64,000 nucleotides of DNA from an uncultured Flavobacteriales bacterium (GTDB lineage: Bacteria; Bacteroidota; Bacteroidia; Flavobacteriales_G; NORP312). A model generated the notes under the pieces. That model was not told the DNA's origin, searched no databases, and worked only from the letters and a program-made list of their open reading frames with translations. Positions 45,028-57,685 of the stretch are shown piece by piece. Where the stretch lies: assembly GCA_905480125.1 (NCBI GenBank), contig CAJQPE010000028.1, positions 1-64,000 on the forward strand, written 5' to 3'. Positions within the stretch are counted from its first letter, which is position 1, and each line of letters begins with the position of its first letter. The translations under genes and the position numbers were made by a program.

Positions 45028-45558
45028 ATGAATAAACAAGATTGTTTTAAATTAGGGTATGTAATAAAACGCCACGGTTTTAAAGGAGAGTTGAGCATTA
45101 AATTCGATTGTAAAACGCCTGATTACTATAAAGAAATTGAGGCCATCTTTATTGAGATTAATGAGCAATTAATTCCATTCTTTATCGAACGGTTGCGCAT
45201 AAATAATAAAGGGATTGCGACAATCAAATTAGAAGATGTTATTAATGATGATGATTCTGGGCCATTGCTAAAAAAAAGCGTATACCTTCCGCTGAATCTG
45301 CTGCGAGAAGACACAAGCTTGGCGGGGGGGTTAAATGAACTAATCGGATTTACCGTAGTTGACAAGACGCATGGAAATATCGGAAAGCTGGCCGATATTA
45401 TTGATCAAACTGCACAGGTTATTTTACAAATAGATAATAATGGGACAGATATTTTGATTCCCGCAGTTGATAATTTTCTTAAGAGTATTAAAACAGAAAC
45501 AAAAACTATTGAGATTGAAGCGCCCGAAGGATTAATCGAATTGTATCTTGGAGAATAA
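45028..45558 (+). CDS. rimM: Ribosome maturation factor RimM
   Basis: A 176-residue 16S rRNA processing factor that binds S19 and helps assemble the 30S head. The N-terminal RimM barrel has FKLGYVIKRHGFKGELSIKF, and the C-terminal PRC-type barrel has LIGFTVVDKTHGNIGKLADI and DILIPAVDNFLKSI. The ATG at 45028 gives the standard start; the track's TTG lies inside a terminator. Gene order rpsP-rimM is conserved in bacteria, although trmD does not follow here. Confidence 0.95.
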   Translation: MNKQDCFKLGYVIKRHGFKGELSIKFDCKTPDYYKEIEAIFIEINEQLIPFFIERLRINNKGIATIKLEDVINDDDSGPLLKKSVYLPLNLLREDTSLAGGLNELIGFTVVDKTHGNIGKLADIIDQTAQVILQIDNNGTDILIPAVDNFLKSIKTETKTIEIEAPEGLIELYLGE

Positions 45559-45586
45559 GATAGCTTCGATTCAGATTAAGTATAAT

Positions 45587-46285
45587 ATGATTTTCAAATT
45601 CAAACAATTTTCGATTGACCAAACCAACTCTCCATTTAAAATTGGAACTGATGGAGTATTGGCTGGGGCACTTTGCACAGTAAACACCTCTAAAAAAATT
45701 TTAGATGTTGGAACCGGAACAGGTCTAATTGCGTTGATGTTGGCCCAAAGGTGCAACGCGAAAATTGATGCAATTGAAATTAATCAAATTGCTTTTAACC
45801 AAGCGAAACTCAATTTTAAAAACTCACCTTGGGTAAATAAAATTAATATTCATCATTGTGCTTTACAAGAATATAATCTAGGCATGAACTATGATTTAAT
45901 TATTAGTAATCCCCCCTTCTTCCAAAGCTCACTTAAATCTGATGTTGAGAGTAAGAACCAAGCGCGCCATATCGATTCATTAAAACTCGCTGAACTTGTA
46001 AGAATATCAGCGGGTTTATTATCATCAGCAGGAAAACTGTGCTTAATTTACCCCGTTGAACAAGGTGAACAGAGCATTCTACTAGCTAAAGAACAGGGGA
46101 TGTATTGTACTAGAATTGTAAGTATTAAACCAACACCAGATAAAAAAACGAAGCGCTTATTTCTAGAATTCGAATTCTCCGATATTCCAGCAATAAGAGA
46201 GGAACTTATTATCGAACAAACCGGAAGGCATCAGTACTCAGAAGCTTATAGAGAACTAACTCAAGAATTTTATCTAGATTTATAA
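45587..46285 (+). CDS. trmN6: tRNA1(Val) (adenine-37-N6)-methyltransferase
   Basis: A 232-residue SAM-dependent N6-adenine methyltransferase. The start phrase FKFKQFSIDQTNSPFKIGTDGVLAGA is the TrmN6/YfiC N-terminus. SAM motif I is ILDVGTGTGLIALMLAQR and the catalytic motif is SNPPFF (the NPPF class for base N6-methylation). The ATG at 45587 is chosen; the frame at 45548 overlaps rimM by 11 bases and adds an unlikely leader. It is part of the rimM transcript and followed by the frameshifted secreted-protein gene after one base. Confidence 0.88.
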   Translation: MIFKFKQFSIDQTNSPFKIGTDGVLAGALCTVNTSKKILDVGTGTGLIALMLAQRCNAKIDAIEINQIAFNQAKLNFKNSPWVNKINIHHCALQEYNLGMNYDLIISNPPFFQSSLKSDVESKNQARHIDSLKLAELVRISAGLLSSAGKLCLIYPVEQGEQSILLAKEQGMYCTRIVSIKPTPDKKTKRLFLEFEFSDIPAIREELIIEQTGRHQYSEAYRELTQEFYLDL

Positions 46286-46286
46286 A

Positions 46287-46983
46287 ATGAAAAATTTTCT
46301 TAGTTCATTTTCTTATTTCATTCCTCTTTATTTACTCTCAAATATTTGCTCAATTAAACCCGGCAACACAAGAATACACCAACTCTGAAATTGAAGATAC
46401 AGCAAAGTTGTTAAAAAAGGGCAAAATCAAACCAGGATATTACGTTAAGGGTATAGATACAACATTTACATTTTTAATTGATTTCAAAAATTCAAAAAAA
46501 ACAAATTCACACCTTTTCTGTGTCGAGTTAATAGGAAAGGATTCAATTAAAATTATTTACCCTAAAGATATTAGTTTCTATTCGGTGAATGGTAAATCTT
46601 ACAAAAAACATATTAATAATAAAAATCATTTTTTTATTGAAGAACTTGAGATTGGTAAAGTCAAGTTATACCAAAGGGGCAAAATTCCATGTGACTACAA
46701 AAATCTCTATTATATTTTGTTCGAAAATGAGAAAGATTATCTCATTTTAGATGCAGACGCAGAAGATATAGAAATAGTTAGATTATCAACTGGTTCGAAC
46801 GGGAATTCTAACGGCTCAGCTACAATAGGAATTTCTAGTTCTGGACAGAACGAAAAATTCAAATCATTTATTAGAACTTACTTTAATAGCTGCGAATCAG
46901 TTGTTAATATGGTTCGAGCTGACCTCCTTACTGTAACTGATTTACAAAGTATTGTGTCTAGATATAATAAGTGCTCAGACTAA
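46287..46983 (+). pseudogene. Secreted protein gene with 1-nt frameshift at codon 2
   Basis: The ATG at 46287 is followed by five As and four Ts. In that frame translation stops after about 33 codons. If one A is removed, the product reads MKIFLVHFLISFLFIYSQIFAQ, a perfect Bacteroidota signal peptide, and continues without a break into the 191-residue ORF at 46408 (total about 231 residues). The mature part is beta-rich with a Ser/Gly stretch (STGSNGNSNGSATIGISSSG) and no family I recognise. Either a sequencing or assembly error, a broken gene, or slippage-controlled expression. It overlaps the convergent gene by four bases. Confidence 0.7.
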
Positions 46984-48326
46984 TACCCGACAAACTCTGT
47001 ATCTTTCTCTGTAAAACTAATACCATGTTGGGATAACTCTTCCAGCATAGGTTTATAAATTTCCTTCGTTACCGGAACATGAACGCCCGGAGTTTTAATT
47101 ACCCCATTGAGCACTAATTTAGTTGCTATTGCGACCGGTATTCCCACCGTTTTTGCCATTGCTGTATAGGTTTGGTCATCTCCTATGCAAACCATAGATG
47201 ATTCTTTTTGGTGTTTCTTTCCATTAAGCTCATAACCGAACTTATGCCACATAATTATCATGTCTTTGTCATCTTCTTCTAATGACCATTTTTCTTCTAA
47301 AATTTTTTGTAGAATTTGTGCAGGAGTTGCATCCTTCATTCCAACTTTTTTTTCACTAAAAATACCCAACCATTCCAATTTTTCGAATACATGGGTGTCG
47401 TCCCACAATCTCAACTGATACTTCAATTTTAATTCAACTGAATCATTTGGATTATACGGAAGAAACGAATTAATAAATTGCCGATATGTCATCTCTTCAG
47501 AGCCCTCCAAGATATAGGAATCATCAGTTGCACCTAATTGGACAAAACAATCCCATGCTCTGCAAAAACCCCTCTTTCTTAATGTCCCTCTATATATAGT
47601 GGGGATATCGTCTAATCCATAGACACTTCTATATCCTAGCGAATCTCGATTAGCATAACCTTCAAACTCACCATGCCCGTCAATATCTATTAGCTCTGTT
47701 CTTCTAAATAATTTATTGTAAGGAACATATTTGTATCTTCCCTCTTGAAAAAATTTTGCTGCACCGCCTTGCCCTGCTAGCACAACATTTCTGGGGTTCC
47801 ACGTAAACTTATAATTCCAAGGATTATTATCACTTTCAGGCGCTACCAATCCACCTGTAAAAGATTCAAAAATGAGCATCTTTCCGCCAGTATCCCTTAT
47901 CTCATCTAACACATTCATTGCGGATAAATGATCTACGCCGGGATCAACGCCAATTTCGTTCATTACAACAACACCTGCAGCTTTAGCATCCTCATTTAAT
48001 GCTTCCATTTCTTCAGAAACATAACTTGCAGTTACCATTGACTTTTTGAGATTAATGCAGTCTTTGGCAACTTGAACATGCATACTCGCAGGAAGCATGG
48101 AAACAACTATATCAGAATTACTTATTTCTGCAACTCGTTGCACTGCATTATTAATGTCAAACTCTATCGCATTAGCATTTTCATGACCACTAATTTTTGA
48201 TTGCGCCAGTTCCAACGAAAGGTCAGCCACTGTCAAATACCAGTTCTGTTCCGCTGAATTTTCAAGCAGATACTTAATCAATGATGAAGCTGACCTTCCG
48301 GCCCCTATTAATAATATTTTACGCAT
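46980..48326 (-). CDS. Saccharopine dehydrogenase-like reductase
   Basis: A 448-residue NAD(P)-binding enzyme of the LYS9/saccharopine reductase type. The Rossmann start KILLIGAGRSASSLIKYLLE is followed by SDIVVSMLPASMHVQVAKDC and EIGVDPGVDHLSAMNVLDE, then the large C-terminal substrate domain (FTGGLVAPESDNNPWNYKFT). The family interconverts saccharopine with glutamate plus aminoadipate semialdehyde in lysine metabolism. In Bacteroidota the usual role is lysine degradation, but the partner enzyme is not in this window. Confidence 0.88.
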   Translation of the reverse strand: MRKILLIGAGRSASSLIKYLLENSAEQNWYLTVADLSLELAQSKISGHENANAIEFDINNAVQRVAEISNSDIVVSMLPASMHVQVAKDCINLKKSMVTASYVSEEMEALNEDAKAAGVVVMNEIGVDPGVDHLSAMNVLDEIRDTGGKMLIFESFTGGLVAPESDNNPWNYKFTWNPRNVVLAGQGGAAKFFQEGRYKYVPYNKLFRRTELIDIDGHGEFEGYANRDSLGYRSVYGLDDIPTIYRGTLRKRGFCRAWDCFVQLGATDDSYILEGSEEMTYRQFINSFLPYNPNDSVELKLKYQLRLWDDTHVFEKLEWLGIFSEKKVGMKDATPAQILQKILEEKWSLEEDDKDMIIMWHKFGYELNGKKHQKESSMVCIGDDQTYTAMAKTVGIPVAIATKLVLNGVIKTPGVHVPVTKEIYKPMLEELSQHGISFTEKDTEFVGY

Positions 48327-55233: not shown

Positions 55234-56277
55234 CTACTTTTTTAATAATTGTAAGGCGTTCATTTTTGAAATCATATCTCCCATAGTTTCCATTAAAGGT
55301 CGGTACTTCATACCCAAACTATTCATACTTTTTGTTGCATTTAAACTGATAGGATAACCTACATTTCTTTTTACAAAAGTAAATGTTGAACCGAACATCC
55401 AACCAATTATATAAAGTAAGAACTTTGGTGCCTTCATTATCGGAAGTGGATACTTATTTCCGTATTTTCCTTTCAATAAACTGGCAAAGTCGAACATGTT
55501 TATAGTCTGTTCACATAAAATATATCTGCCTTCTGCTGCTTCAGATTCTAGCCCAAGAATATGAGCCTTTGCAACTTCCCTAACGTCTACAAATCCAAAA
55601 TCTAAATTAGGTGCCCCTGTATAAAATTTCCCACCAAGCATATCTTGTATAAAGCTTATACTGCCCGAGTTAGATGTTTTAGACAATGGAGGGCCCATTA
55701 CAAAAGATGGATTCATAACAATCAATTTCCAGTTAGATTGTTCTTTTTCTAGCTTCCAAGCCTCTCTTTCTGCCAATACTTTTGAATATGAATATGGTTG
55801 ATGTTGCAAAGTGCTCGTTTCATTAAAGTTCTTTTCTGTGAATTCTTTAAGACCAAGATTAGCCATATCGGAGTTATCCCCGAACACTGCCGCTACACTT
55901 GAAGTAAGAATCACCTTCTTAATCGTACCAGATTTACTTGCTGCATTAAGCACATTTTTTGTTCCCATTAGCGCAGGGTCGACAAGTTCCTTTTGCGGGT
56001 CTTTGAATTTTAAAACAAAAGGGGAAGCTATGTGAAAAACTGCTGAACAACCTTTAGCGGGTTCATCATAAGAGCCTTCTTTCAGTAATGAAGCCTCATA
56101 CAATTTAATGGCTCCTTCACAACTTTCTGCTATATCTAGCAGGTGTTGGTACTTCTTCAAATTCGTTTTTTTGCGAACAGTTAGCCTAACAGTATATCCA
56201 TTTTCTAATAGATACTTAACAACCCAAGAACCGACATATCCAGTTCCTCCAGTAACCAATACAGTTTTATACAACAC
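55234..56277 (-). CDS. Extended SDR reductase, dihydroflavonol-reductase-like
   Basis: A 347-residue NAD(P)-dependent short-chain dehydrogenase of the extended type. The cofactor loop is VLVTGGTGYVGSWVVKYLLE and the catalytic Tyr-Lys is PYSYSKVLAEREAW, with VILTSSVAAVFGD supplying the Ser. The overall pattern resembles dihydroflavonol 4-reductase/cinnamoyl-CoA-reductase-like proteins, which in bacteria reduce diverse carbonyls. Its start overlaps the hisS end by 11 bases and hutH follows after seven bases, so all three are probably co-transcribed. Confidence 0.85.
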   Translation of the reverse strand: MLYKTVLVTGGTGYVGSWVVKYLLENGYTVRLTVRKKTNLKKYQHLLDIAESCEGAIKLYEASLLKEGSYDEPAKGCSAVFHIASPFVLKFKDPQKELVDPALMGTKNVLNAASKSGTIKKVILTSSVAAVFGDNSDMANLGLKEFTEKNFNETSTLQHQPYSYSKVLAEREAWKLEKEQSNWKLIVMNPSFVMGPPLSKTSNSGSISFIQDMLGGKFYTGAPNLDFGFVDVREVAKAHILGLESEAAEGRYILCEQTINMFDFASLLKGKYGNKYPLPIMKAPKFLLYIIGWMFGSTFTFVKRNVGYPISLNATKSMNSLGMKYRPLMETMGDMISKMNALQLLKK

Positions 56278-57613
56278 AGCTATGAATTAATTGTTCAATG
56301 GTTAGGCTAGCTTGCTCTCCAGTTTCCATATCCTTAACTGTTAGTATTCCGTTCGCTATTTCTGTTTCCCCTACCATTACTACTTTTCTTGCGCCCTTTT
56401 CGTTAGCATATTTCATCTGCTTTTTCATTTTAGCAGAATCGGGGTATAACTCGGAACTAATTTCATTGGCCCGCAACTGGGCCAATAAACCTAGGCAGTA
56501 TAATGCTTCTTTTTCTCCGAAATTCACAAATAGAACATCCAATATTGTTTCGATATTCTGAGGAAATAAATTTTGGTCATCCATTACATCATAAATACGA
56601 TCGGCACCAAAAGAAATACCAACGCCAGAAATATCTTTTAATCCAAAAATGCCTGTTAAATCATCATAACGCCCACCACCACAAATACTACTTGGAAAAT
56701 CGTCACATACTACCTCAAAAATAGCTCCTGTATAATAGTTCAGTCCGCGAGCAAGCGTAATATCTAATTCAATACTATCAGGTTTGATATTACACGCGAT
56801 AAGATTCTTCAAAATACTTTGCACCTCATCAATTCCTTTTCTTCCTATATCAGTTGTTCCGATTAGAACTTCCAGTTTTTCTAGCTTAAATTCATTGGTG
56901 CCTGCGAAATCAAATATTGGTTCTAACTTAGTAATAGCTTTGCTAGAAATACCTTTTTCATTTAACTCATTAATAACCCCTACTTGACCCACTTTATCGA
57001 ACTTGTCTAAAGCCACAGTTATATCAATCATTCTGTCTGACTCTCCTATTACCTCAGCAATTCCAGCTAATATTTTTCGATTGTTAAGTTTAATTTTGGC
57101 ATTAATATTCAACTTACCAAGCACCTCATCCATTATCTGAACAAGTTCAACTTCGTTTAATAATGAGTTGGACCCAATTACGTCAACATCGCATTGGTAA
57201 AATTCTCTATATCGACCTTTTTGTGGTCTATCTGCTCTCCAAACAGGTTGGATTTGATATCGCTTAAATGGAAAGGAAATATCGTTCTGATTTTGAACAA
57301 CATAACGAGCAAAAGGAACTGTTAAATCGTAACGTAAAGCTTCCTCCGCATAAGTAGCTTTCTTACCATTCTTACTTTTTTGTAAATCTTTCTCTAAAGA
57401 AGCACCTCGTTTTAGAATTTTGAAAATAAGTCTATCCCCTTCTTCACCATATTTACCCAACAACGTTTCTGTTTTCTCCATCGCTGGAGTTTCAATCGAC
57501 CGGTACCCATACTTTTGAAACACAGTAGAAATGGCATCGAAAATATAATTTCGCTTCACCATTTCTTTTGGTCCAAAATCTCTGGTTCCTTTAGGTATAG
57601 ATGGTTTACTCAT
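56267..57613 (-). CDS. hisS: Histidyl-tRNA synthetase (eukaryote-like type)
   Basis: A 448-residue class II synthetase that charges tRNA-His. Start phrase SIPKGTRDFGPKEMVKRNYI. Motif 2 reads VWRADRPQKGRYREFYQCDV, closer to the eukaryotic GRYREFYQCDFD than the usual bacterial form. The HisA-type motif is LARGLNYYTGAIFEV. A C-terminal anticodon-binding domain ends the protein. ATG at 57613 is chosen; seven extra codons at the track start are unlikely. TACTTTTG sits 18 bases upstream as a possible -7 box. Confidence 0.96.
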   Translation of the reverse strand: MSKPSIPKGTRDFGPKEMVKRNYIFDAISTVFQKYGYRSIETPAMEKTETLLGKYGEEGDRLIFKILKRGASLEKDLQKSKNGKKATYAEEALRYDLTVPFARYVVQNQNDISFPFKRYQIQPVWRADRPQKGRYREFYQCDVDVIGSNSLLNEVELVQIMDEVLGKLNINAKIKLNNRKILAGIAEVIGESDRMIDITVALDKFDKVGQVGVINELNEKGISSKAITKLEPIFDFAGTNEFKLEKLEVLIGTTDIGRKGIDEVQSILKNLIACNIKPDSIELDITLARGLNYYTGAIFEVVCDDFPSSICGGGRYDDLTGIFGLKDISGVGISFGADRIYDVMDDQNLFPQNIETILDVLFVNFGEKEALYCLGLLAQLRANEISSELYPDSAKMKKQMKYANEKGARKVVMVGETEIANGILTVKDMETGEQASLTIEQLIHSCVV

Positions 57614-57685
57614 AATCTTACATTTGAACTTCAAAAGTAATCTTTTGTGGCTTTATTTAGTGCATTTCATTACCTTGGGCAATTG

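What the first reader, a model, noticed from the sequence alone, without database searches (positions are those of the whole stretch)
46287..46300. One-base frameshift in an A5T4 tract right after the start codon of a secreted protein
ATG-AAAAA-TTTT gives an early stop, while removal of a single A yields a perfect signal peptide (MKIFLVHFLISFLFIYSQIF then AQ) fused to a 191-residue open frame. The rest of the gene is intact, so the defect is very recent, an error, or a slippage switch that turns the product on and off.
Basis: seen in the sequence. Interest (0 to 1): 0.5.

Follow-up and report, generated by a model that had tools for sequence, protein, structure and literature searches.

The report
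Signal peptide broken by 13-base duplication
A secreted protein gene of a marine flavobacterium has its start codon knocked out of frame, most likely by a 13-base tandem duplication inside its signal peptide rather than by one extra A; this is an ordinary gene-breaking mutation, since a sister species carries the gene intact.

Summary
The frame break is real in the assembly. ATG 46287 reads only 33 codons, to TGA at 46386, while the +1 frame is open for 230 codons (46291-46983) and encodes a signal peptide plus a ~210-residue secreted protein. Immediately after ATGAAAAA lies a tandem repeat, TTTTCTTAGTTCA/TTTTCTTATTTCA (46295-46320, 12 of 13 identical, period 13 = +1 mod 3). Read with one unit, the A5T4 tract is already in frame. 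The only close orthologue found (sister-species MAG SI039_bin50, 88% amino-acid identity) has one intact frame from the equivalent ATG and no duplication. The repeat is the only non-3n tandem repeat of its size in 324 kb of this genome. No other uncompensated coding frameshift was seen in 36 kb aligned to the sister. The copies differ by one base, arguing against an assembly artefact; dN/dS of 0.24 and no stops mean the loss is recent relative to speciation. Best reading: a natural loss-of-expression mutation, an early pseudogene. A slippage switch is not excluded (population reads unavailable) but nothing supports it. The protein has no Pfam match and only sparse, distant relatives.

The parts
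46287..46388 (+). Out-of-frame short ORF from the original start codon: 33 codons, ends at TGA 46386-46388
46295..46307 (+). Copy 1 of 13-nt tandem repeat TTTTCTTAGTTCA
   Evidence: only period 10-21 repeat of this size in the 64-kb window
46308..46320 (+). Copy 2 of 13-nt tandem repeat TTTTCTTATTTCA (12/13 identical to copy 1; period match runs 46294-46322)
46290..46298 (+).
46291..46983 (+). Open frame of the secreted protein without a usable in-frame start codon (230 codons + stop); signal-peptide remnant to 46350, mature part from Q at 46351
45548..46285 (+). Upstream gene, TrmN6-like methyltransferase (MTS domain), stop codon 1 nt before the ATG; probable operon partner
46980..48326 (-). 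Convergent gene, saccharopine dehydrogenase-like; its 3' end overlaps the secreted gene's stop by 4 nt

Best explanation
In the lineage of this genome a 13-bp stretch at the start of the signal-peptide region was duplicated in tandem (a standard replication-slippage or short-repeat duplication). Thirteen is one more than a multiple of three, so the start codon now reads into a stop after 33 codons, and the secreted protein is no longer made, or is made only in trace amounts by re-initiation or rare frameshifting. One substitution has since separated the two copies. The gene downstream is still intact, so this is an early pseudogene or strain-level loss allele. Shown: repeat, frame break, intact orthologue. 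Inferred: the mutational event, its order, and lack of product.
For: Repeat of period 13 (15/16 matches) unique in the window; dinucleotide shuffles of 46287-46350 gave any comparable repeat in 3 of 5000 and period 13 in 0 of 5000. In 260 kb more of the same genome only two loci have comparable repeats, with periods 12 and 15, i.e. multiples of three. The unit has no match elsewhere in the window within 1 mismatch. Sister-species gene (L004, 92% DNA) has an in-frame ATG, a signal peptide, and is 10 nt shorter from ATG to the shared TATTTACTC, i.e. 13-3. One-copy reading aligns to it with score 41 (or 36 with the other copy) versus 26 as is and 25 with one A less. No other uncompensated coding frameshift in 36 kb versus the sister. 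dN 0.064, dS 0.265 in the mature part.
Against: Only one close orthologue exists in the collections, so the ancestral state is inferred from a single sister whose signal peptide differs at several positions; signal peptides evolve fast and are T-rich. A one-base insertion in a longer ancestral signal peptide that happened to contain the repeat would give the same sequence. The third genus member (G001) has an assembly gap exactly here.
Confidence: 0.72

Rival explanations
1. A single extra A (or T) in the A5T4 tract, natural and recent; the 13-nt repeat is older and in frame through other changes.
For: One A fewer gives a complete signal peptide MKIFLVHFLISFLFIYSQIFA.
Against: Leaves a unique, non-3n tandem repeat at the same place as coincidence; needs a 9-nt longer signal peptide than the sister's and aligns worse; A5 and T4 are short, with low slippage rates (established knowledge).
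Confidence: 0.13
2. Assembly or sequencing error in the MAG.
For: MAG, 83% complete, 112 contigs; reads not available.
Against: The copies differ by one base, unlike a collapsed or stuttered artefact; a 13-nt repeat is well inside read and k-mer length; no other uncompensated frameshift in a coding region in 36 kb aligned to the sister. Locus is inside the contig, not at an end.
Confidence: 0.07
3. Reversible phase-variation switch: gain or loss of the 13-nt unit, or of A in the tract, turns secretion on and off.
For: Position right after the start codon of a surface or secreted protein is typical of contingency loci (general knowledge); frame downstream is intact.
Against: Only two imperfect units; short homopolymers; the sister has neither the repeat nor A5T4; no sign of other such loci in 324 kb sampled.
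Confidence: 0.05
4. The protein is still produced: initiation at the near-cognate ATT 46294, or +1 ribosomal frameshifting in the 33-codon overlap.
For: Open frame from ATT 46294 would give MFLVHFLISFLFIYSQIFAQ; purifying selection.
Against: ATT is a very poor start and the product lacks the basic n-region; the sister uses ATG in a single frame with no shift needed.
Confidence: 0.03

Closest known systems
Loss-of-function frameshift by short tandem duplication (replication slippage), as in many bacterial pseudogenes
   Same: Direct adjacent copies, length not a multiple of three, rest of gene intact, intact orthologue in a sister species
   Different: Nothing essential; copies have diverged by one base
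Phase-variable contingency loci with repeat tracts near the start codon
   Same: Repeat directly after the start codon of a secreted protein; out-of-frame state
   Different: Two imperfect units and short A5/T4 tracts rather than long perfect repeats; no population variation shown
Secreted protein of unknown function, 212 aa, in a distant member of the same class (L067)
   Same: Signal peptide, YPKxI..Y, FFxEE...GKxxLY, C-terminal YNKC motifs; BLASTP E 5e-07 pairwise
   Different: About 20% identity, different gene neighbourhood, intact start

Membership tests
Frameshifted pseudogene (tandem duplication type) | Start codon out of frame with an otherwise open reading frame | tested here: met
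Frameshifted pseudogene (tandem duplication type) | Adjacent repeated unit of non-3n length at the break, beyond chance | tested here: met
Frameshifted pseudogene (tandem duplication type) | Intact orthologue without the duplication in a relative | tested here: met
   (one relative only)
Frameshifted pseudogene (tandem duplication type) | No functional product | not testable with these tools
   needs proteomics or a reporter
Phase-variable contingency locus | Long perfect simple-sequence repeat or homopolymer at the break | tested here: not met
   A5, T4 and two imperfect 13-nt units
Phase-variable contingency locus | Mixed repeat numbers in the population or among strains | not testable with these tools
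   no reads; one genome per species

The most novel reading that the evidence does not exclude
A two-unit 13-bp repeat in the signal-peptide code acts as a reversible secretion switch in a marine flavobacterium, losing or regaining one unit at appreciable frequency.
Probability: 0.04. Interest if true: 0.45.

Novelty: new member of a known kind. Interest (0 to 1): 0.14.

Why it matters
It is a clean example of how a single short tandem duplication silences a secreted protein, and a reminder that the obvious homopolymer near a frameshift is not always its cause. Beyond that it is ordinary; it would matter only if reads showed both states coexisting in the population.

Tried and rejected
Orthologues: family, order and genome-contig scans gave one sister only; viral contigs none. 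Pfam, NCBIfam and PDB sequence searches gave nothing for the protein. AlphaFold2 model with two sequences too poor to use (pLDDT 35), so no fold search was made. Downstream start without signal peptide (TTG 46408): rejected, since the sister has an in-frame ATG and signal peptide at the equivalent place. Apparent 1-nt indels elsewhere in the window (20434, 26692) lie upstream of the likely ATG starts, and those in 56267-57634 compensate each other within a divergent stretch. Literature searches gave nothing specific. Wider profile searches of the class gave few and weak matches besides L067.

Full report
Observation. Read from this ATG, translation stops after 33 codons at TGA 46386-46388. The +1 frame has TGA at 46288-46290 and is then open to 46983, 230 codons, beginning KIFLVHFLISFLFIYSQIFAQLNP.

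Directly after ATGAAAAA the sequence reads TTTTCTTAGTTCA TTTTCTTATTTCA, two adjacent 13-nt units with one difference. The period-13 match runs over 16 positions with one mismatch (46294-46322). It is the only repeat of period 10-21 with at least 16 compared positions and at most one mismatch in the 64-kb window; among 5000 dinucleotide shuffles of 46287-46350, 3 had such a repeat at any of these periods and none at period 13. In another 260 kb of the same genome only two loci have such repeats, with periods 12 and 15, both compatible with an open frame. The unit has no further match in the window and one exact single copy elsewhere in the genome. Thirteen is 1 mod 3, exactly the shift seen. 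Read with one unit, the ATG, the A5 and the T4 are all in frame with the gene.

Orthologue. There the ATG is in frame: MKKIFFFLFLFIYSQIFAQLNPATKEY.... From ATG to the shared TATTTACTC the sister is 10 nt shorter, i.e. one 13-nt unit minus one codon. Aligned to the sister, the one-copy sequence scores 41 (or 36, keeping the other copy), the sequence as it stands 26, and the sequence with one A fewer 25. This single sister is the main limit: signal peptides diverge quickly, so the ancestral form is an inference. The third genus member has an assembly gap here: its contigs end at the points corresponding to about 45.4 and 48.3 kb or so of the window.

Error or biology. The MAG is 83% complete in 112 contigs. 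Over 36 kb aligned to the sister, the other non-3n indels lie between genes, upstream of start codons, or compensate one another inside divergent stretches, so frame errors are rare in this assembly. The two units differ by one base, which a stutter or assembly artefact would not be expected to produce. An error is therefore unlikely, but reads were not available.

Age and consequence. The mature part has dN 0.064 and dS 0.265 (ratio 0.24), against 0.05 for the saccharopine dehydrogenase-like neighbour and 0.41 for the last 114 codons of the methyltransferase. A simulation of neutral drift gives a 2% chance of no stop codon had the gene been free of selection since the species split, 33% for a quarter of that time and 64% for a tenth. 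One difference between the copies fits anything from a tenth to half of the branch. So the duplication is recent relative to the split, but not necessarily very recent. The expected consequence is loss of the secreted protein. Residual expression from ATT 46294 or by ribosomal frameshifting is possible in principle and unsupported.

The protein. It has no Pfam or NCBIfam family and no PDB relative by sequence, and the structure prediction is too poor to use. A distant relative in another family of the class (L067, 212 aa, with its own apparent signal peptide and intact start) shares the YPK.I..Y, FF.EE...GK..LY and terminal YNKC motifs. Relatives are sparse: besides the own genome and L067 (itself in the profile), only weak partial matches among 395 genomes drawn from the class.

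Verdict. The frame break is real, the single-A diagnosis is probably wrong, and a 13-bp tandem duplication is the best-supported cause. It is an ordinary loss mutation. Phase variation remains a low-probability reading that only population reads can settle.

Noticed in passing
window 46291-46983; L067 1498-2136 (-): Sparse, undescribed family of secreted Bacteroidota proteins (~210 aa) with YPK.I..Y, FF.EE...GK..LY and C-terminal YNKC motifs and no Pfam entry.
   Followed up: partly
window 46640-46720: Short divergent stretch in the mature protein versus the sister (YQRGKIPCDYKNL vs YSRAKLPSNSKNL), with paired compensating 1-nt gaps in the DNA alignment; local dS about 0.9 versus 0.27 overall.
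   Followed up: no
window 46980-46983: The secreted gene and the saccharopine dehydrogenase-like gene converge with stop codons overlapping by 4 nt, and no terminator-like hairpin was found between them.
   Followed up: no
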